DNA of 34,863 nucleotides from a virus, in IMG/VR virus record IMGVR_UViG_3300030104_004611, positions 1 through 34,863 of that record; one strand, given 5' to 3'. A program made the position numbers and the translations under genes. Position 1 is the stretch's first letter; every line of letters starts with the position of its first letter. This document shows positions 1 to 32,873 of the stretch, in pieces. The notes beneath the pieces were generated by a model, which searched no databases, was not told the origin of the DNA, and worked only from the letters and a program-made list of their open reading frames with translations.

Positions 1-118
1 CCCCCTTTCCCCGTAGGGCTCGAACTCCCCTCTCCAACCCCGGCTCGGCTTGCCCTTTGGTGGGCCGCCGACCCTTGTCCATCCCTGCTTTTGCTTGGTC
101 CTCGATAGTAGACAACAA

Positions 119-135
119 GAACCACGTAGGGGTTC
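119..135. repeat. Inverted repeat GAACC-N7-GGTTC
   Basis: Perfect 5-bp arms (119-123 and 131-135) flank a 7-base centre, 39 bases upstream of the predicted -35 box. Its place in the divergent region makes an operator conceivable. The arms are short and could arise by chance. Confidence 0.3.
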
Positions 136-173
136 ATGAAACTCAGTCATTTCGTCATACCCACAAAAACGGT

Positions 174-202
174 TTGACGTGTCTGCCGGGATAGTTTACG
201 GT
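174..202 (+). promoter_or_regulatory. Putative sigma70-type early promoter
   Basis: A TTGACG -35 box (174-179; five of six consensus bases) is followed by a 17-base spacer and a weaker TACGGT -10 box (197-202; keeps T, A and the final T). The predicted start of transcription is near 209, about 20 bases before the first gene and its ribosome-binding site. It is the only plus-strand promoter I can support, and it would drive the early operon. Confidence 0.45.
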
Positions 203-230
203 AGGGGTACAACAAGCGACGGAGAGAGAC

Positions 231-773
231 ATGGCAGCCGGATTCAACAAGTACGAGGACAGGCGATTGGGCCAACCAGTAACCGTCCTTCGAGACCTCA
301 ACGCCACGAGGAACGGCAAGCGCATCCGCATTGAGAGCGGCGAGCATGTCTGGACCGTCGCACCCTGTGGGCTTAAGCCGAACGGTGACGTGAAGGCGTC
401 GCCGGGCAAGGCTGCAGAGGGCGGCAAGATTCGCCGCGACGACACGGGCGGCACCGCTCCGGGCAAGCAGCAGGTCGCAGAGGTCCTGTACCTCTACGGC
501 GCGCGCCCCGGATTCAGCCCTTCGCAATACGCGAAAGGTCAGCGCATGGGGAAGCGCACTGTCTGCGCTTGGATGCATGGTACGGCGTCAAAAATTCCTC
601 CAGAGGGTGCGGGTCGGTGGGTGAATCTCCGGTTCAACCCGAAGGTTTCAGACAAGTTTCACGTCGGCACATTTGATGCTTCAAGCGTGCTCGACAGCGG
701 TGCCCGACTTAACTGTGTGCGCTTCGATTCACGGGGTGCGTTCGTGTTCATCCCATGGGAGGAGAGATCATGA
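231..773 (+). CDS. Hypothetical early protein (180 aa)
   Basis: This is the first gene behind the putative early promoter. The ATG follows a strong ggagagag Shine-Dalgarno site by a few bases. The protein is basic in its N-terminal half, with many Lys, Arg and Gly, and looks more globular after residue ~110 (aromatic and beta-prone stretches ending in a FIPWEERS-type tail). I recognise no domain, signal peptide or membrane segment. As the first early gene it might act in host takeover or regulation, but that rests only on position. Its TGA overlaps the next start codon as ATGA, so translation is probably coupled. Confidence 0.75.
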   Translation: MAAGFNKYEDRRLGQPVTVLRDLNATRNGKRIRIESGEHVWTVAPCGLKPNGDVKASPGKAAEGGKIRRDDTGGTAPGKQQVAEVLYLYGARPGFSPSQYAKGQRMGKRTVCAWMHGTASKIPPEGAGRWVNLRFNPKVSDKFHVGTFDASSVLDSGARLNCVRFDSRGAFVFIPWEERS

Positions 774-1054
774 AAACCGTTAAAATCAGATTTGTCGATG
801 AAGCTTTAATCATTGGAAACCTTGGCAGGGAACACCTTCACCTTATGCGCGAAGAATTGGTGCGGGCGTTCAAGAGGGCGCACCCCGATCTTGCCATTCG
901 CCGCGTTGACAAGACACGCCTTGAAATTGAGAAGGCTGTCGGGGTGGTGCACCCGGTCTTTCTTATAGCCGAGTCAATGGAAGCAGCGCCGGGCATCCCT
1001 GCTGATGTGTGTTTCGATTACCGTGGGATTGATGGAGAGGTTATCTATGGTTGA
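770..1054 (+). CDS. Hypothetical early protein (94 aa)
   Basis: The start is placed at the ATG at 770, inside the stop of the previous gene (ATGA) and just behind a gggaggagag ribosome-binding site. An in-frame ATG at 755 is less likely. The product is a small soluble mixed alpha/beta protein: an N-terminal strand (KTVKIRFVDEALII), a charged helix at ~20-40 and a second strand-rich half. No family is recognised. It overlaps the following gene by 8 bases. Confidence 0.7.
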   Translation: MKTVKIRFVDEALIIGNLGREHLHLMREELVRAFKRAHPDLAIRRVDKTRLEIEKAVGVVHPVFLIAESMEAAPGIPADVCFDYRGIDGEVIYG

Positions 1055-1307
1055 TCTGGTTGCAACGTGGGTGCTCGATCATGAGGTGATCTCATGGTCG
1101 GGGCTCACGAACGATACCACGGGTGAGGTGATCGAGTATCGCTTCACCGCGTGGGGCCCAAAGTCTAGCGAGGTATGGCCCGAAGTCGAGTGGTGGTCAC
1201 CCGGAGAGTTGAGAAGTGAGAGCGAGGTATTGGGATTCGCTGAAGCTATGGCTGACGCGGTTGAACTTGAACATGGGGTACGACCCCGAATCATAAAGGA
1301 CTATTGA
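1047..1307 (+). CDS. Hypothetical early protein (86 aa)
   Basis: The start is set at the ATG at 1047 because it follows a gatggagagg ribosome-binding site and overlaps the upstream gene by only 8 bases. An upstream in-frame ATG at 1005 would overlap much more. The small acidic protein is rich in Trp (VATWVL, VISWSGL, WWSPGEL), and its C-terminal half looks helical. I see no recognisable family, signal or membrane segment. Confidence 0.68.
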   Translation: MVDLVATWVLDHEVISWSGLTNDTTGEVIEYRFTAWGPKSSEVWPEVEWWSPGELRSESEVLGFAEAMADAVELEHGVRPRIIKDY

Positions 1308-1310
1308 GAC

Positions 1311-1586
1311 ATGAAGATTAAAATCGACACCAGCGCCATTATTGATACCGCTGGAATTACGCTTCACGTAGGGAACGCACCGATACCAGTTATCGATGAG
1401 ACACTGACATACCTGCGAGCCCAGCTCGATAAACACACGGACCGCAACGGGCACGCTTTGGGTGAGTATGGCTCGGACAACGAACGCCGCGTTGATCGTT
1501 TGTATCACAGGATCTGGGAGGTCGAGGGAATTGCTGCAAGCCTTCGGGAGGGCAATCACCTCATCGGCACGATGGGTAAGATATGA
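1311..1586 (+). CDS. Hypothetical early protein (91 aa)
   Basis: This short soluble protein lies three bases after the previous gene, with an aaagga ribosome-binding site. It has a beta-rich N-terminal third (KIKIDTSAII, GITLHV), then two helices rich in charged residues (residues ~28-80). No domain is recognised. The stop overlaps the next gene's start as ATGA. Confidence 0.68.
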   Translation: MKIKIDTSAIIDTAGITLHVGNAPIPVIDETLTYLRAQLDKHTDRNGHALGEYGSDNERRVDRLYHRIWEVEGIAASLREGNHLIGTMGKI

Positions 1587-1825
1587 AGGTTTTTATCCAG
1601 ACGATTCTACTTCTGATCAGCGCTTCCGCTATGGCGGAACCGCCAAAGGTGAAGAAGTCGAAGTCGGGCATATGCCACGACCAGACGAGCAGATACTACA
1701 AGCGCGTGAAGCATTTCACGGCATACGAAACAACCAGGGCCTGCATTGAGAGCGGAGGCCGGGAACCACAAACAGGGGGGAACAATGAAAAACACAGTAA
1801 TCTATTTCGCGGGCGACAAGGTTAG
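1583..1825 (+). CDS. Small secreted Cys/His protein, copy 1 (80 aa)
   Basis: A Sec-type signal peptide is visible: MK, a hydrophobic stretch FIQTILLLISASA and a likely AMA cleavage site near residue 18. The mature part has a compact motif: ICH (30-32), a YY pair (38-39), F45, C54 and GGREP (58-62). The same motif occurs in the gene at 2319, so the two are paralogues. I associate this kind of short ICH...C..GGR.P segment with secreted bacterial proteins, some nuclease-linked, but have not verified that. The product should be periplasmic or exported. The start overlaps the preceding stop (ATGA), and the C-terminal tail overlaps the next gene by 41 bases. Confidence 0.72.
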   Translation: MKVFIQTILLLISASAMAEPPKVKKSKSGICHDQTSRYYKRVKHFTAYETTRACIESGGREPQTGGNNEKHSNLFRGRQG

Positions 1826-1964
1826 GCTAACCGGAAAAACCTACGAGAAGCACGGCGAAAACTGGGCTGAATTCGAGTGGATTGAAGGCCACAAAAAGGG
1901 TCAGCTTGGCGCTTGTGGAATGAGTCACTGGACGTTCACAACTCAAATTGACCTACAGAGCTGA
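1785..1964 (+). CDS. Hypothetical small protein (59 aa)
   Basis: The ATG at 1785 follows a strong aggggggaac ribosome-binding site, so it is preferred over the in-frame ATG-type start at 1746. The protein is about 59 residues and beta-prone (VIYFAGDKVRLTGK, AEFEWIEG), with aromatics and Gly turns consistent with a small SH3-like or beta-barrel fold. That fold is a guess from pattern only. It overlaps the upstream gene by 41 bases in another frame. Confidence 0.62.
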   Translation: MKNTVIYFAGDKVRLTGKTYEKHGENWAEFEWIEGHKKGQLGACGMSHWTFTTQIDLQS

Positions 1965-1977
1965 AAGGGAACGACCA

Positions 1978-2322
1978 ATGAATCTCAACACGTACACAAG
2001 CGCAGACCTCGAAGCCTTCGACTGCATTTCAGGCTTCGAGACAATCACCGAGCAATGTCGATTCCTATACCAGCTAACCGAGGGTGAGAAGGGTTGGTTC
2101 GAGTGGATTGGTGACCGGTACGCAATCGCTGTGGTTCTCGGAAATACCTGGAGCGAAGACGATGACGGCACGGTCACCATCACCATCGACACCATGGAGG
2201 TCTCAGAGGCACTCGCGGCGGACGGCGTAGACCGTGCGCCTTGCCTTTCTGAAGATACGCAACTTGCTCTGCTCATCTGGTTCATTGGACCCGATGAAGA
2301 CTACGAGGGAAACGAACAATGA
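1978..2322 (+). CDS. Hypothetical acidic protein (114 aa)
   Basis: The start at 1978 is behind an aaaggga site 13 bases after the previous stop; a longer in-frame start at 1948 would overlap it. The protein is strongly acidic, with many Asp and Glu in the second half and an acidic tail (GPDEDYEGNE). Small acidic early phage proteins sometimes mimic DNA to block host DNA-binding enzymes, but nothing here proves that. No known domain is recognised. The stop overlaps the next gene as ATGA. Confidence 0.68.
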   Translation: MNLNTYTSADLEAFDCISGFETITEQCRFLYQLTEGEKGWFEWIGDRYAIAVVLGNTWSEDDDGTVTITIDTMEVSEALAADGVDRAPCLSEDTQLALLIWFIGPDEDYEGNEQ

Positions 2323-2552
2323 AAACCGCACTCATTCTGATGATTCTACTAACGGGTTCCGCTCTGGCGAACCCTCAGCCACAAGTGAAATTAACCAAGA
2401 CCTTAATCTGCCACGGCATCGACTCGCCCTGGTGGGACAAAATCAAGAGCCCAATCGCGACATTCAAAACGGTGAAGGATTGCCTGGGTTCCATCGAGGG
2501 CGCACGGGAACCGAAGCGAAAAAAGAAGAAAGCAAAAGGGGGTGCATCATGA
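2319..2552 (+). CDS. Small secreted Cys/His protein, copy 2 (77 aa)
   Basis: This is a paralogue of the gene at 1583. It has an N-terminal signal peptide (MKTALILMILLTGSALA, likely cut after ALA near residue 17). The same motif follows at almost identical spacing: ICH (30-32), WW (38-39), F49, C55 and GAREP (61-65). It ends in a Lys-rich tail (RKKKKAKGG) that the first copy lacks, which could bind nucleic acid or another anionic surface. The mature protein should be exported. The start and stop both overlap neighbours as ATGA, so it is embedded in the early operon. Confidence 0.74.
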   Translation: MKTALILMILLTGSALANPQPQVKLTKTLICHGIDSPWWDKIKSPIATFKTVKDCLGSIEGAREPKRKKKKAKGGAS

Positions 2553-2740
2553 ACGTTAACGAATTTCAAGAGCCAGCCATCCGAAGAACCACGAAATGGT
2601 CAACGAAGTGGCAACGCCGCGAGTGGGTAATTGATGAGCTTTTCACGCTTGTTGACAGCCTTATCTGTATTTTAACCATGGGCCATTTTCTCGGGGGCCT
2701 GTCCTGGAATCGAAAATTTGGCGGAGATGAAGGGGTGTGA
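2549..2740 (+). CDS. Hypothetical small protein (63 aa), possible membrane segment
   Basis: The ATG at 2549 overlaps the previous stop (ATGA) and follows a run of purines (aaaagggggtgc) that can serve as ribosome-binding site. The N-terminal half is basic (IRRTTKWSTKWQRR). Residues ~32-53 (FTLVDSLICILTMGHFLGGL) are hydrophobic enough for one membrane-spanning or amphipathic helix. An inner-membrane early protein is possible. No family is recognised. Confidence 0.58.
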   Translation: MNVNEFQEPAIRRTTKWSTKWQRREWVIDELFTLVDSLICILTMGHFLGGLSWNRKFGGDEGV

Positions 2741-2741
2741 G

Positions 2742-3170
2742 ATGAGTGATTGTGAGCAGAGGGTAGACGGTGCGCTGAACTCAAGGGCTGACGACTTCAC
2801 CGTGTACATGAACAACGTCGAGATAGAGGAAGAGGGGTCGGACGAGTTGCCCCCGATGAATCACTATGGATTGTCATTTGAGTATGTTGAGCCACATGAG
2901 GACGATATCGAGAAGGACGACTGGTCTGGCGCATACTTTCGATATCAGCTTTCGTGGGGCGGTCCATCTGATGAGATCAGGTTTAAGAGGAACGGCAAAA
3001 TTGAGTACGTGTTTCAGGATTGGTTTGACGGTGCAACGCGAGACATCAGTGATGAAGATTGGGCCATGTGGCTGCGCGAAGCTTTTGCGGTTAGTGGCTC
3101 GGCATTTGATATCAATCGAAACATTGCGCAAAAGGCACACGACTTGTACCTGGAAAGGAGTTTTCTATGA
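2742..3170 (+). CDS. Hypothetical acidic protein (142 aa)
   Basis: The start is placed at 2742, one base after the previous stop and behind ggagatgaaggggtg; in-frame ATGs at 2718 and 2727 would overlap the upstream gene. The protein is very acidic in residues 1-60 (EIEEEGSDELPP, EPHEDDIEKDD), with a beta-rich centre (YFRYQLSWGG, IEYVFQDWFDG) and a helical C-terminus. No domain is recognised. As with the gene at 1978, the charge would fit a DNA-mimic or host-inhibitor role, but this is only speculation. Confidence 0.68.
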   Translation: MSDCEQRVDGALNSRADDFTVYMNNVEIEEEGSDELPPMNHYGLSFEYVEPHEDDIEKDDWSGAYFRYQLSWGGPSDEIRFKRNGKIEYVFQDWFDGATRDISDEDWAMWLREAFAVSGSAFDINRNIAQKAHDLYLERSFL

Positions 3171-3343
3171 ACAACGGACTCAACGATCACTTGTGGAACC
3201 TGCTGGAGCAGGCGAGAGACGAGAGAGACGAAGCTCTCGCCCGAATGATTAACGCAGAAGAGGAACTGAAGAAGGCAAAGGAACAGGCCGCGAAGGCAGT
3301 CAAGCTGCTCGTTGGTCTAGACATTACGGACAAACCGTTATAA
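3167..3343 (+). CDS. Hypothetical coiled-coil protein (58 aa)
   Basis: This short gene was found by reading the gap after 3170. Its ATG at 3167 overlaps the previous stop (ATGA) and follows a good ggaaaggag ribosome-binding site. It encodes 58 residues ending at a TAA at 3341-3343. Residues ~13-48 form a charged heptad-like helix (LLEQARDERDEALARMINAE...EELKKAKEQAAKAVKLL), so a short coiled coil is likely. No function can be assigned. Confidence 0.65.
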   Translation: MNNGLNDHLWNLLEQARDERDEALARMINAEEELKKAKEQAAKAVKLLVGLDITDKPL

Positions 3344-3345
3344 CA

Positions 3346-3358
3346 TTAACCAAGTTAA
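3346..3358. repeat. Inverted repeat TTAAC-CAA-GTTAA
   Basis: A perfect 5-bp inverted repeat with a 3-base centre sits in the only intergenic gap (32 bases) of the early operon, just upstream of the Cys-rich gene. It could be a small operator. It is too short and AT-rich, and has no U-tract, to call a terminator. Confidence 0.3.
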
Positions 3359-3375
3359 ACCTGTGCGGGGATAAC

Positions 3376-3972
3376 ATGAACGCTAAAACATCATGGGCGC
3401 AACTGCTTAAACAGTGCGAATTCTGTAAATCGACAACGTGTGACAGGGATTGTCTGTCAGACCATTGGTGCGGGTGTGGAGACTGCGAGTGGACAGTCAG
3501 AGAGGACATCACCATTTGCCGGGAGTGTGGCGAGGAACCGCGAGACCACGAGCCCGAGTTGCCTGCGGGTGAGTATTGGATTGGCGACCCTTGCTATATC
3601 CTCACCGAGTCCAATGGCTTTGACTGGCACGACGTGCTTCTCCAGACGAACTACCTACAGGGTGGAACAAGGGAGCACCCAGGCCGGGGCGGTCTGTTCA
3701 CATATTCAAACAAGGACGTGGACATTCTGATCTTTTCATCCAATACGCAGTGGGGCGATGGGTGTTACCAAGACCAACACGGTAACGAGTATGGTGTCGA
3801 TGCCGGATGCATTGCGTGTATCCCAATGGAGGCCTTGACGAGCGTCGCGGGTGTGCCCGATGGGTTGCACCTTGGACACGTTCACACGATGCCTGACTTT
3901 GTGTGCAGCACGGTTAACCGTGCGGGGCACATCACCTTTGGAGATATCACCATCAAGACAGGGGGGCGATGA
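3376..3972 (+). CDS. Cys-rich (zinc-ribbon-like) protein with IGDPCY domain (198 aa)
   Basis: The first 51 residues hold nine Cys (14, 17, 22, 26, 32, 34, 37, 48, 51) plus His30, a pattern for one or two zinc-binding modules. The rest matches a pattern I know from many small phage and bacterial proteins: IGDPCY (69-74) followed by WGDGCYQDQHG and VDAGCIACIP (126-150). That family has no assigned function as far as I know. The combination of a Cys cluster with this domain is unusual. The gene follows a short intergenic gap with an inverted repeat, has a ggggata ribosome-binding site, and its stop overlaps the next start (ATGA). Confidence 0.75.
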   Translation: MNAKTSWAQLLKQCEFCKSTTCDRDCLSDHWCGCGDCEWTVREDITICRECGEEPRDHEPELPAGEYWIGDPCYILTESNGFDWHDVLLQTNYLQGGTREHPGRGGLFTYSNKDVDILIFSSNTQWGDGCYQDQHGNEYGVDAGCIACIPMEALTSVAGVPDGLHLGHVHTMPDFVCSTVNRAGHITFGDITIKTGGR

Positions 3973-4199
3973 TGCCACATATAGATAGAGTAATAGAGAT
4001 TGCAACAGACGCAATCAAAAGGGTTCGGGGTTACGGCCTCGTTATGGCAAGCGAAGCGTTCCAACGCGGATTCGCTCACGGTATATGCGGACACACCCAG
4101 GGAGCCCCATGGTTCCGTGGGAGTGATGTCTATCAATTGGGTGTAAAGGTCGGCGCTGATATGCGCGCCGAATGGACAACGAAAGAGGGTGCGGAATGA
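3969..4199 (+). CDS. Hypothetical protein (76 aa)
   Basis: Two adjacent ATGs (3969, 3972) can serve as start; the first overlaps the previous stop (ATGA), and the second has better spacing from the caggggggcg site. The product is a short, Gly-rich soluble protein with a helical N-terminus (IDRVIEIATDAIKRV) and a central sequence with His and Gly (FAHGICGHTQGAPW). No domain is recognised. Its stop overlaps the next gene as ATGA. Confidence 0.65.
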   Translation: MMPHIDRVIEIATDAIKRVRGYGLVMASEAFQRGFAHGICGHTQGAPWFRGSDVYQLGVKVGADMRAEWTTKEGAE

Positions 4200-4498
4200 G
4201 TGTGAGAGACACAATTGTCAAGCAGCTTGATGGGCCATCGTTTGGCGACAAGGTATCCGACAGGATTCGATGGCGCCTTATGCTTCTCCAGTGCAATGCA
4301 GAAGAGCGCGCGCGGAAGCTTGGTCTTGATGAGGCGGGTGCAAAGAAGGTGGCGCGGACAATCAGAGACACAACGTCACGCTCAAGCGGTAGGCGAATCC
4401 ATGAGGTTGCCGAGTACCTTGGTTTGCCTACTGGAGCTGTCCTGCTTGGCGGGCTACCTGCTCTTGATGATGAACTGTTGAGGCCCGAAGATGTATGA
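4196..4498 (+). CDS. Hypothetical helical protein (100 aa)
   Basis: The start at 4196 overlaps the upstream stop (ATGA); an in-frame ATG at 4172 would overlap more. The protein is helical and charged, and residues ~55-90 (VARTIRDTT...RRIHEVAEYLGLPTGAVLLGGL) could form a small DNA-binding fold, though no clear helix-turn-helix is visible. It lies immediately upstream of, and overlaps by 8 bases, the recombination exonuclease. It may therefore be co-translated with the recombination cassette. Confidence 0.65.
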   Translation: MSVRDTIVKQLDGPSFGDKVSDRIRWRLMLLQCNAEERARKLGLDEAGAKKVARTIRDTTSRSSGRRIHEVAEYLGLPTGAVLLGGLPALDDELLRPEDV

Positions 4499-5639
4499 CC
4501 CATCTCAATATGTAAGACCAGAGGCAGACCGGCAAAGGCTTGAGGAACACTTCGGGGTTCCGATTGCTGACACGGTTGACAAGATCTATAGCCTCGGGGC
4601 GTCGAACGTGTCCATGGTCCTGAACCGTAACCCCTATGGCGGACCCCATAGGGTGCGGGCCGACCTACTCGGACGCGGGGAAGCTGTGACGGGTGACCAA
4701 TTGGCACGAGGTCATGAGCTTGAGAACACCATCGCCATGCTTGTCATTGAAGACTTGCGTGCCCGTGGGTTTTCAGTGATTGAACCGTGGGGTTCGACCA
4801 GATGGTACGCTCTGCCCTGGACACACTGCACCTATGACAGGCTAATCCTGAACAAGGATGGTGTGGCTGTCGGCGTTCTGGAGATTAAGAGCGTAAACAA
4901 TGAGTTTAAAGCTTACTCATTCGAGGACCGAGACGACCATCAGCTACAGATGGAGCATTGCGCCTATGCTATCACGAGGGCATGGGGTAAGCAGGCCCAC
5001 CCGATGATGCCTGAGAGCATGCTCGTGTGTTTGGCCACGAGTGAGAACGCCTTCACCATGTTGAGAGAGAAGCTCGCGAGCGAGGGCCTCGATTCAAGTG
5101 TCGCGCTTGCTCAGGAAATGGTGAAGACAGGCTTGGCAAAGCTGCACGTCTGCAAGCCGTCCGTTAATCCAGACAAGTATGAGAGGGACGTTATCCCCGT
5201 CCTGTCCGAGTGGTACAAGCAGCACGTCGTGCTTGACCAGATGCCAGCCGTCGATGATTCGCGTGAGTGCTCCGAGTTCTTGCGCCTGTCGGTCGATGAG
5301 AGAGATGGGGACACCGAGGTGTGTGACAACATTGCGCAGCTAGCCAAGCGGCGCATTGAAATCAAGGAGGCAATCAAAGAGCTAGAGTCAGAGGTGAGAG
5401 GCATCGACAACCAGTTAAAGCTTGTGATGGGAAGACATCGAAGAGCTTTCGGTCAAGGTGTGTCGGTGACAATCAGCAGGCGTCCAGGCGCAAGGCGTTT
5501 GAACCAAGCAAAGATGCGTGAAGAGGTGCCCGATATCGTTGAGAGGTTTATCGAAGAGGGCAATGAATACGAGGTGCTTTTAGTGAAGCGCCAAAAACAG
5601 GAGGTGCGGGATGGCGGCGAAGAAAAAGAAGCTGTGTGA
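4491..5639 (+). CDS. YqaJ-like recombination exonuclease (lambda-Exo fold)
   Basis: This is a phage recombination nuclease of the PD-(D/E)XK superfamily, expected to resect one strand of double-stranded DNA ends so that an annealing protein can load. The motifs are clear: GHELE (74-78) in the N-terminal helix, D116 in CTYDRLI, E131-I-K133 in LEIKS, and a Gln/Tyr helix QLQMEHCAYAI (151-161). Residues ~280-320 look like a coiled coil (KRRIEIKEAIKELESEV), and the tail is charged. At 382 residues it is longer than a minimal YqaJ domain. It is followed at once by a DUF1071-type annealing protein, SSB and a RuvC-like resolvase, which strongly supports the role. An alternative reading as a Cas4-like nuclease is unlikely, since the cysteine cluster is missing. 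Confidence 0.88.
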   Translation: MYDPSQYVRPEADRQRLEEHFGVPIADTVDKIYSLGASNVSMVLNRNPYGGPHRVRADLLGRGEAVTGDQLARGHELENTIAMLVIEDLRARGFSVIEPWGSTRWYALPWTHCTYDRLILNKDGVAVGVLEIKSVNNEFKAYSFEDRDDHQLQMEHCAYAITRAWGKQAHPMMPESMLVCLATSENAFTMLREKLASEGLDSSVALAQEMVKTGLAKLHVCKPSVNPDKYERDVIPVLSEWYKQHVVLDQMPAVDDSRECSEFLRLSVDERDGDTEVCDNIAQLAKRRIEIKEAIKELESEVRGIDNQLKLVMGRHRRAFGQGVSVTISRRPGARRLNQAKMREEVPDIVERFIEEGNEYEVLLVKRQKQEVRDGGEEKEAV

Positions 5640-6231
5640 AAGGGTCTGGTCCACGTTTAGTGAGATCAGAGTCTTTGAACGTGGCTATGTATCAAAGAAG
5701 CAGGGCCTTAACTATGTTCAGTGGTCCTATGCAATGGAGTGTCTCAAGGCAGCATTCCCTGATTCAGATGTGTGCTGGAGAGAGTGGGATGGTTTGGACC
5801 ATTTGCTTTACCCAAATGGTTCAGCCGTTGTTGAGGCTATCATTACAATTAGGGATGGTGGTGAAGAGGTTACGGCTAAGTTTCCATTGCCCGTTCTCGA
5901 CTACAGGAACAAGGCAATCGAAAACCCTAATGCCATGGATGTCAACACGGCAAAGATGCGTGCCTTCGTTAAGGCGATGGGCACCCTTGGCTTTGGGCTT
6001 AACGTCTACCAGGGTCATGAGCATGACGGCGTTACCGAGCAGGCTGATCCAACCGAGGCGCTGGAGGCCCTCAAGAAGACATGTGACGATGCAGGTCTAG
6101 ACCTTCGACTGGTCGAGGATTTTGTACAGATGAACAAGAGTACATCAATGGCAGACCTTGAGGCTAAGGACATCTTTAGCCTTCAGGTGTATGTCTCAAA
6201 CAACCAGAGCAAATTCAGAAAGGATACGTAA
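5611..6231 (+). CDS. DUF1071-type single-strand annealing protein
   Basis: This 206-residue protein matches the pattern of the DUF1071 family of phage single-strand annealing recombinases. It has a basic N-terminus, LNYVQWSYAM (33-42), a central strand pair ending in PLPVLDYRNKAI (93-103), and the long conserved segment NPNAMDVNTAKMRAFVKAMG followed by LGFGLNVYQG (106-135). Such proteins coat single-stranded DNA and promote annealing at the ends made by the partner exonuclease. The start follows an excellent aggaggtg ribosome-binding site and overlaps the exonuclease gene by 29 bases. The C-terminal ~65 residues are less conserved and helical. It sits between exonuclease and SSB, the usual arrangement. 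Confidence 0.85.
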   Translation: MAAKKKKLCERVWSTFSEIRVFERGYVSKKQGLNYVQWSYAMECLKAAFPDSDVCWREWDGLDHLLYPNGSAVVEAIITIRDGGEEVTAKFPLPVLDYRNKAIENPNAMDVNTAKMRAFVKAMGTLGFGLNVYQGHEHDGVTEQADPTEALEALKKTCDDAGLDLRLVEDFVQMNKSTSMADLEAKDIFSLQVYVSNNQSKFRKDT

Positions 6232-6614
6232 TGCAGAACATCACAACCATCGGTCGGCTTGGTGCCGACCCAGAGAGCAAGCAAGCAGGCAACTCCAACG
6301 TGACCGAGTTGCGCTTGGCTGTTAGCGGTGGCAAAGACCGAGACGGTAACGACCAGACAACGTGGTACCGCGTATCCGTCTGGGGCAAGCAGGGTGACGC
6401 CATCTCAGGCAGAGTTGGCAAGGGTGGACGGGTGATGGTCATGGGCAGGCTGATGCCGCCCAAGATCTATCGATCTAAGAATGGTGACCCCGGCCTCGAC
6501 CTAACAATCAACGCCGACACCGTCCGCATTATCGACTACAAAGACGACACACCAAAGCACAAGGATGTGAGCAGCGGCAGTGGTGGGTGGGGCTCAGACC
6601 CGGTGCCGTTTTGA
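6231..6614 (+). CDS. ssb: Single-stranded DNA-binding protein (SSB)
   Basis: This is a typical OB-fold SSB of 127 residues: MQNITTIGRLGADPE at the start, ELRLAVSGG, TTWYRVSVWGKQGD around 43-56, and GGRVMVMGRL. A flexible Gly/Ser linker (SSGSGGWG) leads to the tail DPVPF, a short version of the acidic SSB tip (consensus DDDIPF) that docks partner proteins. It protects single-stranded DNA during replication and recombination. The start overlaps the previous stop by one base (TAATG). The codons for the tail overlap the resolvase gene if that gene starts at 6587. Confidence 0.92.
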   Translation: MQNITTIGRLGADPESKQAGNSNVTELRLAVSGGKDRDGNDQTTWYRVSVWGKQGDAISGRVGKGGRVMVMGRLMPPKIYRSKNGDPGLDLTINADTVRIIDYKDDTPKHKDVSSGSGGWGSDPVPF

Positions 6615-7114
6615 GTGGTGCTATTGTCGGCATTGACCCCGGCAGACGGGGTGCAATGGTGGCCATCGAGGGGGGCGAGGTTGTCGCCTCCCTCATGATG
6701 CCATATAGACAGAACGCACTCGACCATGAAGAGGTGCTAACGTGGCTAGAGAGGCGCGACATCAGGATGATTGTTATTGAGAAGCAACACGCTATGCCAC
6801 GGCAGGGCCTGTCATCAATGTTCACCCTTGGCTATCGATACGGGGAACTGTGCGGCATCGCCAGAGCCCTAAGGTTTCACCTCGAATGCCCATCACCGCA
6901 AACATGGCAAAAGATTATGCTGAAAGGTGCAGACGGGTACGGCAAACTTAGAGCCCTTGGCAGGGTTAAAGAGTTGCTGCCCGGTCTAGGGCTGCGTCCA
7001 GGCAGATGTCGTGTTGACCAGGACGGCCTAGCCGATGCTGGTCTGCTTGCCTTATATGGTGAATGGGTCATCGACAAGGAGCGCAGCCGTGCCCGGTTTA
7101 GCTGGATAGATTAG
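6587..7114 (+). CDS. RuvC-like Holliday junction resolvase
   Basis: A compact RNase H-fold nuclease of the RuvC type. Numbered from the GTG at 6587, the acidic residues are D17 in IVGIDPGRRGAM, E65 in IVIEKQ, and D146/D150 in DQDGLADAGLLALYG, all in the expected order. It would resolve branched DNA made by recombination and clear junctions before packaging. It completes the exonuclease - annealing protein - SSB cassette. The start is uncertain: GTG at 6587 lies within the ssb gene; a TTG at 6611 would give a TTGA overlap with the ssb stop and keep the whole catalytic domain. Host-type RuvC partners (RuvA/B) are not present. Confidence 0.85.
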   Translation: MGLRPGAVLSGAIVGIDPGRRGAMVAIEGGEVVASLMMPYRQNALDHEEVLTWLERRDIRMIVIEKQHAMPRQGLSSMFTLGYRYGELCGIARALRFHLECPSPQTWQKIMLKGADGYGKLRALGRVKELLPGLGLRPGRCRVDQDGLADAGLLALYGEWVIDKERSRARFSWID

Positions 7115-7195
7115 ATGAGCAGGACTCACCTATTTCTAATCGGGTGCTTCATGCTTGGAATGCTGGTTGGCAGCCTTGTCACCTGTGACGGTTAG
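7115..7195 (+). CDS. Possible 26-aa membrane peptide
   Basis: A tiny open reading frame starts directly after the resolvase stop (TAG-ATG) and ends at a TAG at 7193-7195. Residues 6-23 (LFLIGCFMLGMLVGSLVT) form one clear hydrophobic segment, so it would be a single-pass membrane peptide. It is the last plus-strand gene and overlaps the end of the converging minus-strand gene by 4 bases. The ribosome-binding site is weak, and so short a frame can occur by chance. Confidence 0.35.
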   Translation: MSRTHLFLIGCFMLGMLVGSLVTCDG

Positions 7196-7536
7196 TCCAA
7201 ATGGGTAGCAGTGGGGTCCAGCAATCGCTGGGCCTGCATTCCCCGGATTGAAGCGTGGACATCTTCTAAGATGCGTCCATGATCGTCTAGTTTCTTAACC
7301 ACATCAGCATAGATAACGCTTTGCTTTTCCTCATGACGGGCTATGACATTGTCATACCGATTGCGGATTAGCTCTTCGGCTGCACTGTGTGCAGTCTCTT
7401 GGTCCCTGACTGTCTGCTGAAAGGACTCAACAGTCTCGTCGAGACGTTTGGTGTTCTTGGTATGCTGCCAGATGAGGAACCCGGCGAATAGCCCAAGCGC
7501 ACCGAAGTCCAGCAGGCTTGAGGTTATAGTTTCCAT
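7192..7536 (-). CDS. Membrane-anchored coiled-coil protein, holin or i-spanin candidate (114 aa)
   Basis: Residues ~5-23 (LLDFGALGLFAGFLIW with flanks) form an N-terminal membrane helix, followed by a long charged coiled coil (about 27-105; RLDETVESFQQTV, AEELIRNRYDNVI, DVVKKLDDHGRILEDV). This topology is seen in i-spanins and in a loose group of phage BhlA/UviB-like proteins sometimes called holins. It is the last gene of the late operon, after the fibre genes, where lysis genes are common. It could equally be a virion or membrane-anchoring protein. The ribosome-binding site is weak, but it sits 5 bases from the upstream gene. Confidence 0.6.
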   Translation of the reverse strand: METITSSLLDFGALGLFAGFLIWQHTKNTKRLDETVESFQQTVRDQETAHSAAEELIRNRYDNVIARHEEKQSVIYADVVKKLDDHGRILEDVHASIRGMQAQRLLDPTATHLD

Positions 7537-7541
7537 GATTG

Positions 7542-7793
7542 TTAACTCGCAACGTACACGATGTGCTGGAGTTCCATCATCTCGGCCTCGGTCGGGGCCT
7601 GTGCCTGCACCTTAGCTTCGTAGACTCTGAGGTCGCCTGCAATGACGTTGGTCTCCCTGCTCATGCCAGAGAATGGCATTGTGGGCTCAACCACCATGAT
7701 GATTAAAACCCACTCCGCATCGATGTCCTTAAGCTTGATTGCCGGAAGCCCCGACAGGTCGGTGGGTGCGCCATAAGACTGTCCAGTTATCAT
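7542..7793 (-). CDS. Small late protein, fibre-associated (83 aa)
   Basis: The start is placed at the ATG at 7793, which overlaps the upstream stop (ATGA) and follows a gtggagcg ribosome-binding site; a GTG at 7805 would extend it by four residues. The sequence has a beta-rich first half (IDAEWVLIIMVVEP, NVIAGDLRVYEAKVQ) and a helical end (PTEAEMMELQHIVYV). It lies directly after the three fibre genes and may be a small virion protein or fibre chaperone. No family is recognised. Confidence 0.62.
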   Translation of the reverse strand: MITGQSYGAPTDLSGLPAIKLKDIDAEWVLIIMVVEPTMPFSGMSRETNVIAGDLRVYEAKVQAQAPTEAEMMELQHIVYVAS

Positions 7794-8512
7794 GTCACGC
7801 TCCACTTAGAGGACATTGAGAATGAGTTATTTGATGAGCCCAGATACACATCATCCCCGCCCGGCTGAACCGTTAAGGCCCACCAGTCACCAGCATTGTA
7901 TGCATTCCCTGAGCTTACCGTTGAAGAGCCCTTATAGTAGGTGTCATCGGTGCCGGTGCCACTCCATGTGAGTGAGTCAACACGGGTCCATGTGACAAGG
8001 GTGTCGTAGTCAACACCATCAGTGGGTGCCGGGGCACTCCACATTGACCACTTTGCATTGCCAGGGTCGGTGCCGCTGGCCAGGGTCTCAGTCATATACC
8101 CATCAACACTGAAGCTATCGAGCGTGCAATCAACGGCAACAATGCCGCTCCTGATGTAGAGCAGCGAGTTAACAATTGATGCCGTGAAGGTTGGCGCGTT
8201 TGGCGTGCTGTCTGAATACGTAACCTTACCACTGAGGGTTGTTGTAATTAGTGAGTATCGGGAGTTTTCTGTATAGGTGGAGTGACCCATCAGGTTGTTA
8301 TTCGTCCACTTAAACCGACCAAAATGGTCAATGGAGAATGTGTCTGATGAGCCACCGCCGCCACTTGCTGCAATGGTGACCGACCCCGACCCCGTTGTCA
8401 GGGTCACGCCGGACCCAGCAACAAGGGTCACACCATTGTCGGAAGCGGGCTCTGCGTTTGACTGACCGGACACCTCGAAGTGTGTCACGGGATTGGGGTT
8501 ACGGTATGCCAT
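7790..8512 (-). CDS. Putative tail fibre / receptor-binding tip protein (240 aa)
   Basis: The start at the ATG at 8512 leaves only 1 base between it and the upstream stop; a GTG at 8539 would add nine residues. Ser/Thr/Gly-rich repeats at ~25-60 (NGVTLVAGSGVTL, GSGSVTIAASGGGGSS) form a shaft-like or linker region. They are followed by a ~180-residue beta-rich, Trp/Tyr-containing domain that ends the protein. It has the make-up of a fibre tip that contacts the host surface. Being last in the fibre cassette, it is the best candidate for the receptor-binding domain. No enzymatic motif is seen. Confidence 0.65.
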   Translation of the reverse strand: MAYRNPNPVTHFEVSGQSNAEPASDNGVTLVAGSGVTLTTGSGSVTIAASGGGGSSDTFSIDHFGRFKWTNNNLMGHSTYTENSRYSLITTTLSGKVTYSDSTPNAPTFTASIVNSLLYIRSGIVAVDCTLDSFSVDGYMTETLASGTDPGNAKWSMWSAPAPTDGVDYDTLVTWTRVDSLTWSGTGTDDTYYKGSSTVSSGNAYNAGDWWALTVQPGGDDVYLGSSNNSFSMSSKWSVT

Positions 8513-8513
8513 C

Positions 8514-9341
8514 TTACAGGATCCACCATGCAACGGCACTGCCGTCGGTACAGGCTACCAACTCAACGGCAGCGTAAGCAGTAACAAGGGCATCGAGTGC
8601 GCTTGAGCTGTGGTCGACGCCATCAATCTTGTCGGCAGCTGCGGCAGACTTCAGGGAAACCTTGACGCTTCCACTTACGGAACCACCAGCCTTGAAGATG
8701 ATGCGGTCACCAGCAGATGGCGATGGAAGGGTAACAGTACAGCTGGAGCTGATGTCGCAAATGTAAGTGTAGTCAGCAGCAGCGGTGAAACTGGTGCCGG
8801 TCTGTCGGCTGACGGTCATTCCGCCGGAGTCGTCTGCGCCCCACGAAAGGGTGCCCGAAGAGTTGCTCTTGAGGACGTAGCCGGAAGATGAGGCGTCTGA
8901 CGCTGGCCATGTGTAAGCCACACCGTTGAAGGTGGTGGTACCCGAAGAGCCAACGGTGAAGTTACCACCAGTGGTAACAGCACCAGAGCTGAAAGATAGT
9001 GCGGTTGCAGCGCTACCATCCTTGATGTCATTACCGGTGACGGTGAGGTCTCCGGTAACACCCAGGTTTGCGCTGACGGAGATGTCCCCGCCTGAGCTGG
9101 TCAGGACGGTAGTGTCACTGCTGTTCTTGAAGAGGGTGCCGCTGGCACCGGCCTTGATGTAGCCGCCACCCTGGAGGACGAGGTCTTTGCCGCTTGCAAG
9201 AGTAACGTCACCACCCGCGCTGACTGCACCCGCTAGAGCAACAGCACCAGTGCTGTCGGTCAAAGTGATTGCCGTCGTTCCGTCCGAAGCCTTGAGGTCA
9301 TTACCCAAAAGCACGTTATCATTTGATACTGAATAAGCCAC
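8514..9341 (-). CDS. Putative tail fibre protein (275 aa)
   Basis: The gene starts with GTG at 9341 behind a perfect aggagg ribosome-binding site. The first ~140 residues are a low-complexity beta shaft with repeats such as GDVTLASGKDLVL and LGVTGDLTVTGND, typical of trimeric phage fibres. The C-terminal ~100 residues (SFTAAADYTYICDISSSCTV then LPSPSAGDRIIFKAGG and a VELVACTDGSAVAWWIL end) match the beta-sandwich-like end of the neighbouring gene at 9353. So the two appear related. Likely a fibre shaft subunit with a small head domain. Confidence 0.7.
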   Translation of the reverse strand: MAYSVSNDNVLLGNDLKASDGTTAITLTDSTGAVALAGAVSAGGDVTLASGKDLVLQGGGYIKAGASGTLFKNSSDTTVLTSSGGDISVSANLGVTGDLTVTGNDIKDGSAATALSFSSGAVTTGGNFTVGSSGTTTFNGVAYTWPASDASSSGYVLKSNSSGTLSWGADDSGGMTVSRQTGTSFTAAADYTYICDISSSCTVTLPSPSAGDRIIFKAGGSVSGSVKVSLKSAAAADKIDGVDHSSSALDALVTAYAAVELVACTDGSAVAWWIL

Positions 9342-9352
9342 CGTTGTACCTC

Positions 9353-9844
9353 CTAGTACACGTAATAGTTAGTGCCATCAGACACGATTGAGACTGCCGC
9401 TCTTGCGCCAATCAGGTTGTAAGTGCTCGATCCGTTCACATTGCCACCATTGCCGTCAATGATGGTCTTATAGGTGCCCGCTGAACCTGTGTCGATGAAG
9501 TGCCAGGACTCACCACTCAACCCCGAAGCTGGCGCTGGAAGTGTGAGGGTGATGTCTCCTGAGCTGCCGGAATGGTCAATCAGAATGAAGCCATCCGAAG
9601 CGGTGACGCTGTAGTTGCCAGTCTTCGTTGCAATACTACGAGAGCCACCACCAGAAATTGTAAGAGTCGAGCCCGATGCGCTGGTCGATACGCCATCAGC
9701 ACCAACGATGGCAAAGGTGCCAGATGCTGTGATGGGTGTGACGCTGCCAGAGTCGGACGAGAGGCCGACAGAGGTGACGGTGCCACTACCGGAGCCACCA
9801 GATACCGGACCACTGTTTGTGAAGTTACTTAGCAGGTTGCTCAT
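9353..9844 (-). CDS. Putative tail fibre protein with GTVTSVG repeat (163 aa)
   Basis: It begins with an ATG behind a ggggg ribosome-binding site. Residues ~15-70 are a Gly/Ser-rich segment with GSGTVTSVGLSSDSG and SGSTLTISG, a repeat style very common in tail fibres of environmental phages. The C-terminal half (ATKTGNYSVTASDGFILIDH, DITLTLPAP, IDGNGGNVNG, SIVSDGTNYYV) is a beta domain shared with the following gene. It would attach to the tail through its N-terminal part and form part of the fibre complex. Confidence 0.7.
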   Translation of the reverse strand: MSNLLSNFTNSGPVSGGSGSGTVTSVGLSSDSGSVTPITASGTFAIVGADGVSTSASGSTLTISGGGSRSIATKTGNYSVTASDGFILIDHSGSSGDITLTLPAPASGLSGESWHFIDTGSAGTYKTIIDGNGGNVNGSSTYNLIGARAAVSIVSDGTNYYVY

Positions 9845-9852
9845 GTTGCCCC

Positions 9853-10185
9853 CTACTCAAAACACAGGGCGTAGACTGCCGCACCGTTCTGTATGTAGAT
9901 GCCTCCAGTTGGAACGCCAACCAGGGGGATGAACATACTGCCAAGCTCAGAGATGGCGATACCCTCGCCTGCCTCACCCTTGTCTGCCTCGTCTCTGATG
10001 TAGATGGTGGCTGCTGAGTTGTTGCTCAGGAGAACCGATGACGGGAAGAACCCAGCCAAAGAAGTAATCTGGCCGATGAGGTCTTCAGCGTCAGAGCCTG
10101 GGTTAGCAGGGATCTTGATGTACTTTGTTTTAGCAGTGAAGACGCAGTTGTTTACGTAACTTCTTGCTGTTATTCCAGCGGCCAT
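9853..10185 (-). CDS. Small virion protein of the fibre cassette (110 aa)
   Basis: The ATG follows a clear aaggagt ribosome-binding site, and a 49-base gap (10186-10234) separates it from the giant internal protein gene. The protein is beta-rich (KTKYIKIPANPG, SVLLSNNSAATIYIRDE, GIYIQNGAAVYALCF), like a small jelly-roll or Ig-type decoration or baseplate-hub subunit. The position between internal proteins and fibres suggests a tail-attachment or fibre-adaptor role. No named family is recognised. Confidence 0.6.
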   Translation of the reverse strand: MAAGITARSYVNNCVFTAKTKYIKIPANPGSDAEDLIGQITSLAGFFPSSVLLSNNSAATIYIRDEADKGEAGEGIAISELGSMFIPLVGVPTGGIYIQNGAAVYALCFE

Positions 10186-10234
10186 TGGTTACCACTCCTT
10201 AATAGTGTTGTGGTTATTCGAGGCTATTTGTGGA

Positions 10235-13200
10235 TTATTCTACTATATTGTCGCCCGGTCGTCTTTCTTTTTTGGAACGATTGAGACCCCTCTTCATGCG
10301 GCCCCTTAAGAAAATGGAGTCGGGGTCAAGCTCCAGCCCGCGCTCTGACATGCGCTTTTCCATTATCTCTCTGTTGGTGCGGTACTTACCACCTGCCTGA
10401 TTCTTGCGGTGCTCAATCTCAGCCCGGTCTGCATCAAGCTGTTTCAGCAGCCTATCTCTAAGCCTTTGAGCCTCATCAGCGATGATGTCATCCCAGAATG
10501 CTGCCTCATCCTTCAGCTTGTTGATGATGTTAATCTCTTTGCCGGTGGCTGGGTCGGTCACCATTCTGGTAACCTCTGCCTGCTCAAACCTTTTGGCTTC
10601 CTTCTTAAGCCTGCCCGCTGTTTGAGCCTTAAGCTCACGTTCAAAGCCCTCTACATGGTAATCTATTGAGCCCTTCTTACCGGACACAATGCGTGGCTTG
10701 CCTGTGCTCACCCTGCCAGACTTAGAGATGCGGAACTTGCTTTTCTTTCTGGACTCAACCCTTGTCGGGGTGTACGCGAACCGGAATATCTGCCGGATGC
10801 CGAATCGCGCAGCCGTTTCCTTTAGCTCTGGGTCAAGTTTCACACGCTCTGGAAGGTCATCGAACAGGCCCTTCTCTGAGATGATGGCTCGTGCAGCCTG
10901 GGCGCTATGGAACAGGGTGCTGCCCACCATGCTTGCACCAAACTTCATGGCCGCCTTCTCTAGGGTCATCGGCCTGCCAAACTTGTCCTTGAAGTTTGAT
11001 GTTGCATCCACAACAAACTCCAATAGCGGCCCACCAGCCATACCCACAAACTGAACTGCCTCTCTTGAGTTGAGGCCCTTGCCGGTCAACTGCCTTATGG
11101 CCAGAGACATGCGGCGCTTATCCTCAAGCGAGTCTCCGGTGGACTCCTTGATTCGCTCCTTAATCTCCGCAAGGTTTTCAGCCTTGGTGTCTCCACGGGC
11201 AAGAGCTACAGCCCCGCCGAATGCGCGAAGGGCCATGTTGAATGGCCCGAAAAGGTCTACGTTCTGGAGTGACTTGATGCCTACAACACCCTCGTTGTTG
11301 ACGGGGCCAGACACAAGGATGGGGCTCTGGATGTCGTAGTAAGACGCCATCTCTCTATATGCGTCTCTTCGAGCACGGTCTTCAATATCGCCAACCTGAT
11401 GGAATGCTGTACGCCTTAACGATGCAGTCATCGAGTCTTTAAGCTGCTTGGCCATGAGTGCTGTGCTGCTGCTGTCCACAATCGGTGAGAACTCACCCAT
11501 TATGACGTTGCCAGCCAGCCCGCCGCGCCTCCCGAAGAGGGCCTTGCTGAACCATGTATAAAACAGGGAGCCGATGCCTACCAGCGGTGCGCCACGGAGC
11601 GTTGTACTCAGCAGCCCAGTGTCGAAGTAGTTAAAGAACTTGTTCTCAGCGGCCATTGCAGCGCCTTGTGCAGCAATGTCGGACAGCTCGTCAGGGGATA
11701 GCAGCTTCCCATCGCGGAAATACTTATCACCTACCCTCTTGAGTTGGACAGCTTTGGTGCTGTCCACCATGAGTGTGGCTGTGTCCCCATCCTTGAGCAT
11801 CTTGAGGTCAGATAGAACCCGGTTATAGACAACGCGAATTTCACTGAGCTTGGCTAGAACGTCTCCATACCTGTAAAAGGTTTCAAACGGTTTGGCTATC
11901 TTGCCAGCCAGCCCCTTGCCTTCGATTAGTTTTGTTTCAACCTTTAGCTGGTCAGTTTCTAGAACCCCAGTCTTTTTTACTGAGTTAAAGAATCTGTTCT
12001 CGGCAGGGCTGACCCGCTTACCTCTTTCGTATGCAAGGAAATCTGCACCCTCTTTGAGAAACTCTGCAAGCGTTGCGGAGAGCGGCGTGCCGCGATCTAT
12101 AGATTGGACCAGGGCGTTCGCAATCACCTGAAAGCTTCCTGTTGCCACACTGAATACGGTGAGAGCCTTCTTGCCAAACCTGTTGAGTTTAGCAAAAGCC
12201 CCTCCCCCCGTAGCCATCTCTGTCGCCTTGTCGATGGCGTCGAAAACTTTGACCGCCTTTTTATCAACAAAGCCACCAAGGTCGTCCCTCTGTATGAAAT
12301 CGTTTCTGATCCTTTGGTTGAGCTTAATCATGTCTTGTTTGACTAGCTCGGGGGATAAGCCTGGGTGGTTTTCAATAACCTTGTCTACAGCCCGGTCCAG
12401 ATTGCCGGGTCTAAACGTCATTGTGCGCCTAAGCTTGTTCCGCGTCACATCCTTAAACGGCAAAAAGAGTACGGGAGTGCCATCGATGAGCCCCTTTTCA
12501 AGCTCATAAATCTTGGCCCACATGTCCTGATAGCCAGAGGGGTTTTGCTCTATAAATTCCTCGAATGACTTGCCTATGTTTTCAGCTTTGGACGCCCAGT
12601 TTTGATATATCGAAGACACGGGGGTAGATGTGTCTGCAATAATCTTGGTCCTGTAGTCGTTGGTGACCCTCTTGTGGATTATGCCTAGCGTGTTAAGGGC
12701 TACATTCCTCTGCGCCGTTGGAGACTTGGCTACTGCATCTTGGATGTACCTGCTGATGGGCACCTCTTCGATAGCCTCTGGCTCAAACCCTTTTGCACGC
12801 CTTTTCCTCTGGACTACAGCAACAGTGTTGGAGCCAGCCTGCCAAGACGCCTCAAGTTCAGCCAGCCATTCACCGGCAGATACGGGATTCCACCCTTCTT
12901 TAATAAGCTTGGACAGCACTAGGTTCTTTACGCCCTCATCGGCCAAGAGGCCGATGCTGTCGCCACTCATTAGCTCTCGAATCATTGCCATGTGAGCAGG
13001 GACAAGATTCTTTTGCTCTCGAAAGAGCTTTGACTGGCTTTCACTCAGCCCCATCCTGGATTCTGCAAGCCCTTCCAGTAAGACGTTCTCAATCTTACCC
13101 ATAAGGGCTTCTGCTCGCGGACCCAGGTCTTTGATGACCACCGGCTGCTCTAGGCCAGCCTGCACCCTTTCCGATAGAAGCTTCTCGGCACCCCTAACTC

Positions 13201-32081: not shown

Positions 32082-32873
32082 CTATTCCTCACCATCGAAG
32101 CACATGCATGGCTCTGATGGTGCCATAAAGAATGGCATTTTAACCTGTCGCCTGTCTGCATCCACAATCTCTTCCCACGACAGGTTTCTTGCCAACCCTC
32201 GCACGGTTGAGAGGGCTGACTTTGCATTGTGCTCCATCTTTACGGCTCTCTCAAATAAGTCAGGTCTCTTGTTTGCCAGTTCAATGATTTCCCACTTCCT
32301 TGATGCGGGACAAAACCAGCAGGCCGACTTGCCCGGGGGCTCCAGGCCAGCACCTTCGATAGCTGCGATACATTCGTCGCGCCCCCAATACCAGTCAATC
32401 AGCGGGAACTTGTAGACAAACTTGTTGTCATCAGGAATCTGTCCTCGATGTCTTTCGCCAGCATCAATGCCGATAAGTCTGGTAACTCGTCCACCAGCCT
32501 CCCAGTGTTTAATGGCGGGCTCCCAGGTTTTGACGTATCGATCCATGGGTTGGCGCTTCCACTTAACGGAGCAGCCCTTAAAGCCAAACGCTAGGGATGG
32601 GAGTGTTTTGTTGTTGATGCATTCGTCTTCGAGTGACTTGTGTGGGAAGCCCTCTCTAGCAGCATTATTTACTCTAACGATTGGGTCCATGCCCTGCTTT
32701 GCGAGCCATGCATCCATTTCGTCGAGGTGAACATACGTGCGCTCATGCTCCGCCCCGGTGTCTGCGAAGAGGATGAGGTCTGGGGGCGTGCATTTTTGCA
32801 CGAGGCCGATAAGCAGTGCGGTGGAGTTAACGCCCCCACCAAGGGATAGGACTGTTGGGTTTTGGGTGCTCAT
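32082..32873 (-). CDS. PP-loop PAPS-reductase-like protein (263 aa)
   Basis: An ATP pyrophosphatase-fold enzyme. The PP-loop is SLGGGVNSTAL (10-20), and FADTGAEHERTY (36-47) is the typical next motif of the PAPS reductase/CysH-DndC group. Several Cys follow: C101 (KGCSVKWKRQ), C185/C188 (CWFC), and C256/C258 (CMCF), which could bind an iron-sulphur cluster or carry sulphur. True PAPS reductases have a C-terminal catalytic Cys in ECGLH, which is not seen here, so assimilation of sulphate is unlikely. Sulphur transfer to nucleic acid or a nucleotide is a better guess. It overlaps the helicase stop (ATGA) and precedes the endolysin. Confidence 0.75.
   Translation of the reverse strand: MSTQNPTVLSLGGGVNSTALLIGLVQKCTPPDLILFADTGAEHERTYVHLDEMDAWLAKQGMDPIVRVNNAAREGFPHKSLEDECINNKTLPSLAFGFKGCSVKWKRQPMDRYVKTWEPAIKHWEAGGRVTRLIGIDAGERHRGQIPDDNKFVYKFPLIDWYWGRDECIAAIEGAGLEPPGKSACWFCPASRKWEIIELANKRPDLFERAVKMEHNAKSALSTVRGLARNLSWEEIVDADRRQVKMPFFMAPSEPCMCFDGEE

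What the first reader, a model, noticed from the sequence alone, without database searches (positions are those of the whole stretch)
1583..2552. Two paralogous secreted Cys/His mini-proteins in the early operon
Genes at 1583 and 2319 each have a signal peptide and the same motif: ICH at 30-32, aromatic pair at 38-39, Cys at 54/55, then G-x-REP. Retaining two copies of an exported protein in the early region suggests a role at the periplasm or envelope, perhaps in superinfection exclusion or inhibition of a host envelope enzyme. The second copy has an additional Lys-rich tail.
Basis: partly seen in the sequence, partly recalled or inferred. Interest (0 to 1): 0.6.

Follow-up and report, generated by a model that had tools for sequence, protein, structure and literature searches.

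The report
Phage copies of exported-nuclease accessory domain
A phage carries two tiny exported proteins that are free-standing copies of a small, probably disulfide-locked domain which bacteria attach to several unrelated secreted DNA-cutting enzymes, suggesting that the phage uses them to act on DNA or on nucleases in the host's periplasm.

Summary
ORFs 1583-1825 (80 aa) and 2319-2552 (77 aa) have signal-peptide-like N-termini and share ICH 30-32, an aromatic pair 38-39, Cys 54/55 and G-x-REP. They align at E=9e-13, or 2e-9 without the signal peptides. Each is one copy of a ~45-aa exported module, (V/I)K-x-S-x-SGICH-x5-YY-x-R-x-K-x-F-x2-(Y/F)-x5-C-L-x2-GGR-x-P, not covered by a Pfam or NCBIfam model above its cut-off but widespread in Proteobacteria. 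There it is fused to exported nucleases of unrelated types (GmrSD_C HNH, SNase, Endonuclease_NS; once to a metallo-beta-lactamase-fold protein), or stands alone or in tandem pairs. Profile and structure searches point weakly but consistently to the 'sunset' domain and the N-terminal DNA-binding domain of Ada. The Ada zinc cysteines are absent; strict two-Cys-per-module bookkeeping indicates a disulfide. The second gene is under purifying selection (dN/dS 0.09 in the mature part) in the one close relative found, which lacks the first gene. Best reading: basic, disulfide-locked, probably nucleic-acid-binding periplasmic mini-proteins. Whether they shield DNA, interfere with host exported nucleases or exclude superinfecting phage is undecided; superinfection exclusion was neither supported nor excluded.

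The parts
1583..1825 (+). Protein 1 (P0001), 80 aa: exported single-module protein; ATG overlaps the stop of the gene upstream (1311-1586)
   Evidence: module profile 78.9 bits; phrog_37565 C-terminal part E=4.6e-15
1583..1636 (+). Predicted signal peptide of protein 1 (MKVFIQTILLLISASAMA, cut before E19)
   Evidence: sequence form and hydropathy heuristic; no SignalP run
1646..1768 (+). Module of protein 1 (K22-P62) with C31-H32 and C54, predicted order strand-strand-strand-helix
   Evidence: alignment A2, AlphaFold2 pLDDT about 82-87 over the first 40 mature residues
1769..1825 (+). Non-conserved tail of protein 1; bases 1785-1825 overlap the start of the next gene (ATG at 1785)
   Evidence: low pLDDT
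2319..2552 (+). Protein 2 (P0002), 77 aa: exported single-module protein with Lys-rich tail; ATG overlaps the stop of the upstream gene, stop overlaps the ATG at 2549
   Evidence: module profile 28.1 bits; 84% identical ortholog in L010
2319..2369 (+). Predicted signal peptide of protein 2 (MKTALILMILLTGSALA, cut before N18)
   Evidence: heuristic; evolves freely between two phages, dN/dS about 1.4 on few sites
2382..2513 (+). Module of protein 2 (Q22-P65), diverged: WW for YY, 1- and 2-residue insertions, GAR for GGR
   Evidence: alignments A2/A3, AlphaFold2 pLDDT 85-93 in the core, dN/dS 0.09 in the mature part
2514..2549 (+). Lys-rich tail of protein 2 (KRKKKKAKGGAS)
   Evidence: conserved in L010 ortholog, predicted disordered

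Best explanation
Both genes encode free-standing copies of a small exported module that bacteria use as an accessory domain of secreted or periplasmic nucleases. Shown by computation: homology to the module, presence of signal-peptide-like N-termini, a common predicted fold, two cysteines per module, basic charge, and purifying selection on protein 2. Inferred: after Sec export and signal-peptide cleavage the proteins fold in the oxidising periplasm, C31 pairs with C54/55 in a disulfide that takes the place of the zinc site of the Ada-like fold, and the basic surface (plus the Lys tail of protein 2) binds nucleic acid. Inferred with less certainty: made during infection without a catalytic partner, they coat DNA in the periplasm or compete with the host's module-bearing exported nucleases for substrate or docking sites, so that phage DNA crossing or released into the periplasm is spared (or, in the mirror version, superinfecting DNA is held back). 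My estimates: exported module identity 0.9; disulfide 0.8; Ada/sunset-like fold 0.65; nucleic-acid binding 0.5; specific role in protecting phage DNA 0.2.
For: Module homology with a window-independent profile. Fusion partners among exported proteins: GmrSD_C HNH, SNase in L033 and L104, Endonuclease_NS in L153, metallo-beta-lactamase fold in L097. Stand-alone single and tandem forms. Weak but repeated match to NCBIfam sunset: 62 of 74 modules at E<=1, best 2.2e-5; that library also lists ribosomal proteins with sunset domains. Foldseek of the protein 1 model against 350,542 PDB chains returns only three hits, all N-terminal Ada, two of them DNA complexes (TM about 0.5, E 3-9); protein 2 also finds N-Ada at TM 0.52-0.55. 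Exactly two Cys in 59 of 60 short proteins, four in 32 of 32 tandem proteins, and an extra pair in 5 of 5 'CHC' variants. Net charge +7 and +9, pI about 10. dN/dS 0.09 in mature protein 2. An unrelated phage contig with a DNA-polymerase gene, L166, also carries a single exported module.
Against: No direct evidence of DNA binding; Foldseek E-values are not significant and sunset scores lie below the curated cut-off (27 bits). The module could equally anchor nucleases to the envelope. Basic charge is common in small phage proteins. Neighbours of stand-alone bacterial copies give no functional hint. The host is unknown, so it is not known whether it makes a module-bearing nuclease. A protein made after entry cannot protect the genome that is already inside.
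Confidence: 0.45

Rival explanations
1. Envelope-anchoring module: it binds a cell-surface or periplasmic component (peptidoglycan, LPS, an envelope protein), which keeps nucleases at the cell; the phage copies occupy that site, perhaps blocking DNA entry of a second phage (superinfection exclusion).
For: N-terminal position right after the signal peptide in the HNH fusions and C-terminal in others suits a targeting domain. Small exported Cys-containing phage proteins with exclusion roles are known in general (own knowledge; HK97 gp15 is cited as such in PMC13190303).
Against: No similarity to any known exclusion protein was found; the weak fold and profile signals point to nucleic-acid-associated domains.
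Confidence: 0.27
2. Host-benefit or neutral cargo picked up from a host: a bacterial stand-alone exported protein of general use (for example handling of external DNA as nutrient) carried by the phage, with protein 1 a recent arrival.
For: Protein 1 is nearest to stand-alone betaproteobacterial copies, is close to the bacterial consensus, and is absent from the closest relative phage. The family is patchy: 2 of 274 genomes drawn from one class, one of them the genome used as centre.
Against: Protein 2 has diverged far from bacterial forms yet is strongly constrained in its mature part, which implies a phage-specific function; no integrase was noticed in the window.
Confidence: 0.18
3. Zinc-binding Cys/His mini-protein (classical zinc finger or Ada-type zinc domain).
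For: C-H motif and distant resemblance to the zinc-containing N-Ada domain.
Against: Only C31, H32 and C54/55 are conserved as possible ligands; cysteines come strictly in pairs per module; the compartment is oxidising.
Confidence: 0.05

Closest known systems
N-terminal module of exported 'HNH endonuclease family' / DUF1524 (GmrSD_C, PF07510) proteins of Alteromonas, Vibrio, Marinobacter, Oceanimonas
   Same: Same module, same place directly after a signal peptide, 46-60% identical to protein 1
   Different: The phage proteins lack the nuclease domain altogether
Stand-alone exported single-module proteins (e.g. L082, L096 Betaproteobacteria; L062, L106 Salinisphaera; L045 Aeromonas)
   Same: Same architecture: signal peptide plus one module, basic, two Cys; nearest to protein 1 in the tree
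   Different: Bacterial genes; usually end with P-K-R/K at once, whereas protein 1 has an unrelated tail and protein 2 a Lys-rich tail
phrog_37565 (phage family, function unknown)
   Same: Its last ~50 positions are this module (E=4.6e-15 and 0.002)
   Different: 291-position family with a large additional N-terminal part, absent here; a Vibrio phage member has its module broken by a stop
NCBIfam sunset domain NF051437
   Same: Weak match over the S-G-x-x-H..Y stretch in most modules; similar size of about 42 aa
   Different: Below the curated cut-off (13 bits for protein 1 against 27); the helix Cys and the Cys before His are features of the present module
N-terminal domain of E. coli Ada (PDB 1u8b, 1zgw, 1wpk)
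   Same: Only PDB hits of the protein 1 model; a DNA-binding domain (Ada function in PMC4437013)
   Different: Ada is cytoplasmic, larger, with a four-Cys zinc site and methyl transfer to C38; here two Cys and export
Excalibur-type tail of SPbeta YokF nuclease
   Same: A small two-Cys module on an exported SNase (YokF sequence; naming from own knowledge)
   Different: Different sequence; calcium-binding type; no sunset match

Membership tests
Exported ICH module family (defined here) | Profile match clearly above shuffled sequence | tested here: met
   78.9 and 28.1 bits; best shuffle 10.8
Exported ICH module family (defined here) | Signal peptide before the module | tested here: met
   heuristic hydropathy and cleavage-site form; not SignalP
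Exported ICH module family (defined here) | Two cysteines per module, C before H and C in the helix | tested here: met
   C31 and C54/55; family count. The search pattern required both Cys, so their invariance is partly built in, but the absence of further Cys is not
phrog_37565 | Match over the full profile length | tested here: not met
   only positions 240-290 of 291: shared domain, not membership
NCBIfam sunset NF051437 | Score above curated cut-off 27 bits | tested here: not met
   13.0 bits for protein 1; 20.6 for the best full-length relative tried, L007
Ada zinc-binding domain | Four-cysteine zinc site | tested here: not met
   two cysteines only
Ada zinc-binding domain | Fold of the N-terminal Ada domain | tested here: inconclusive
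   TM 0.48-0.55 to 1u8b/1zgw/1wpk, E 3-9, models of moderate confidence
GmrSD_C / DUF1524 exported nuclease | HNH nuclease domain | tested here: not met
   no Pfam hit; ORFs end after the module
Superinfection exclusion protein | Blocks infection by related phage when expressed | not testable with these tools
   needs plaque assays

The most novel reading that the evidence does not exclude
Phages have taken the targeting domain of the host's exported nucleases, free of its catalytic domain, and export it during infection as a competitive inhibitor that protects DNA in the periplasm from those nucleases: a periplasmic anti-nuclease.
Probability: 0.15. Interest if true: 0.75.

Novelty: new variant of a known kind. 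Interest (0 to 1): 0.42.

Why it matters
It shows that a small exported domain, so far without a model of its own in Pfam or NCBIfam that reaches cut-off, recurs on secreted nucleases of at least three unrelated types and has been taken up on its own by unrelated phages. If it binds nucleic acid, it is a portable periplasmic DNA-binding unit stabilised by a disulfide; if the phage uses it against exported nucleases, it would point to a counter-defence stage at the periplasm, where few anti-nuclease proteins are known (the last clause from own knowledge).

Tried and rejected
Pfam, NCBIfam and PHROGs scans of the two proteins gave no functional family. Scans with the RecE-like protein and with protein 1 found no relatives in viral contigs; megablast of window 1-12000 against phages found nothing. 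Related DnaB-bearing fragments (L148-L151) carry no module, but they are fragments. A sequence profile search of the PDB gave only a chance hit. BPTI hits for the protein 2 model are probably noise: TM about 0.33, rmsd 5-7 A. Neighbourhoods of stand-alone bacterial copies show no shared partner. I expected Bacillus phage SPbeta YokF to carry a sunset domain; it does not. Recent duplication within the phage was considered and is disfavoured by identities, but the tree (46 columns) cannot decide. No paper on the sunset domain or on exported DUF1524 nucleases with this module was found in the library.

Full report
OBSERVATION. The window is a 34,863-base virus record with terminase, portal, head, DnaB-type helicase, SSB and recombination genes. 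ORF 1583-1825 encodes 80 aa and ORF 2319-2552 encodes 77 aa. They are homologous: BLASTP E=9e-13, and 2e-9 for the mature parts alone, so the signal peptides do not carry the match. Both start with K2, a hydrophobic stretch and an A-x-A cleavage site (AMA|E, ALA|N); this is a heuristic judgement, as no signal-peptide predictor was available.

WHAT IT IS. PHROG family 37565 matches both proteins only with its last ~50 of 291 positions, so the shared unit is a domain. tblastn against plasmids found the same unit at 46-60% identity near the N-terminus of exported 'HNH endonuclease family' proteins of Alteromonas, Vibrio, Marinobacter and Oceanimonas, and alone in Aeromonas. The C-terminal part of those proteins is GmrSD_C/DUF1524. 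A degenerate DNA pattern of the module then gave 17 viral and 119 cellular stretches, the latter capped. The genes read from them fall into: signal peptide + module + HNH domain (42 by motif and about 19 more by eye); signal peptide + one module (29 short genes, some cut by contig ends); signal peptide + two modules (32, mostly Comamonadaceae); signal peptide + module + SNase (L033 and L104 confirmed by Pfam; L039 and L044 by eye); Endonuclease_NS + module (L153, E=3.8e-49); metallo-beta-lactamase fold + module (L097); and L103, an exported protein with no Pfam match that may be a PD-(D/E)XK nuclease (by eye, untested). A profile from the database modules alone, leaving out the window's two proteins and the L010 ortholog, scores the window proteins 78.9 and 28.1 bits, against 10.8 bits for the best of 4000 shuffles. 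The module thus accompanies exported nucleases of at least three unrelated types.

FOLD AND CHEMISTRY. AlphaFold2 with 74 and 55 aligned modules gives the same order of elements, strand-strand-strand-helix, for both proteins (mean pLDDT 75.6 and 83.2, cores about 82-93). Foldseek of protein 1 against the PDB returned three hits in all, every one the N-terminal domain of Ada, with TM about 0.5 but non-significant E-values; protein 2 finds the same Ada entries among BPTI hits that I judge to be noise. In the viral library the best hit has probability 0.99 and TM 0.60, but no name. In NCBIfam, 62 of 74 modules weakly match the sunset domain (best E=2.2e-5, below cut-off), and the same library lists ribosomal proteins with sunset domains. 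Ada's N-terminal domain binds DNA (PDB titles; PMC4437013). The four-Cys zinc site of Ada is missing. Instead cysteines come in strict pairs: two in 59 of 60 short proteins, four in 32 of 32 tandem proteins, and an extra pair in all five 'CHC' variants. In an exported protein this is best read as a disulfide between C31 and C54/55. The pattern used for the search required C, H and C, so their invariance is partly built in; the lack of additional cysteines and the invariance of K in strand 1 (74 of 74) are not.

SELECTION AND HISTORY. The nearest relative found (IMGVR 3300030110_004040; DnaB 98% identical) has an 84% identical protein 2. The mature part has dN/dS 0.09 and the signal peptide about 1.4 on few sites, as expected for a working exported protein. 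That relative has no protein 1. Protein 1 is nearest to stand-alone betaproteobacterial copies (L082, L096). A clade of the two phage proteins is neither supported nor rejected. An unrelated viral contig with a DNA polymerase gene (L166) carries its own stand-alone exported copy, so phages have acquired the unit more than once.

MECHANISM. Steps supported by computation: export signal, module identity, common predicted fold, basic charge (+7, +9), constraint on protein 2. Inferred: disulfide, nucleic-acid binding. Speculative: purpose in infection. Because the module's partners are exported nucleases and the phage copies lack a catalytic part, I favour action in the periplasm on DNA or on module-bearing nucleases of the host. 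A shield or competitor of such nucleases and an exclusion device against a second phage are both compatible. Nuclease attack on phage DNA at the membrane during injection is a documented defence (SNIPE, PMC13190303), though SNIPE's nuclease domain is cytoplasmic and unrelated. An envelope-binding function of the module is the strongest rival.

NOVELTY. The module has no Pfam or NCBIfam model that reaches cut-off, and the papers available do not describe it. It is best called a new, probably disulfide-locked, exported variant of a known kind of small accessory domain (sunset/Ada-like), with the reservation that this kinship is suggestive rather than proven.

Noticed in passing
window 1 and 34863; L010: In the relative phage contig the DnaB gene (window 34117) runs on into the early gene series (window 231 onward), so the two window ends are probably joined: a circular or permuted genome of about 35 kb.
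   Followed up: partly
L002 4495-4620 (Vibrio phage vB_ValM-yong1): A module remnant (SSGI-stop-NSPASSWYKRTKNYTAYNSMDSCVANGGRLPN) follows the exported protein QGF21274 between CI repressor and integrase; the stop lies inside the C-H motif, so the module looks decayed.
   Followed up: partly
L103 3313-3447 (Bacteriovoracaceae MAG): Module at the C-terminus of an exported protein with RVDCLTDEHAIEIDFA...KWYEAIGQ, possibly a PD-(D/E)XK nuclease; no Pfam match.
   Followed up: partly
window 32082-32873: Gene for a phosphoadenosine phosphosulfate reductase-like protein (phrog_424) next to DnaB.
   Followed up: no
L166 5436-5771: Viral contig with a DNA polymerase gene carrying a stand-alone exported module (SEICH variant) among accessory genes including possible wall hydrolases.
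   Followed up: partly
window 10235-15013: A 1592-aa protein on the minus strand without any PHROG match; position among structural genes suggests a virion protein.
   Followed up: no
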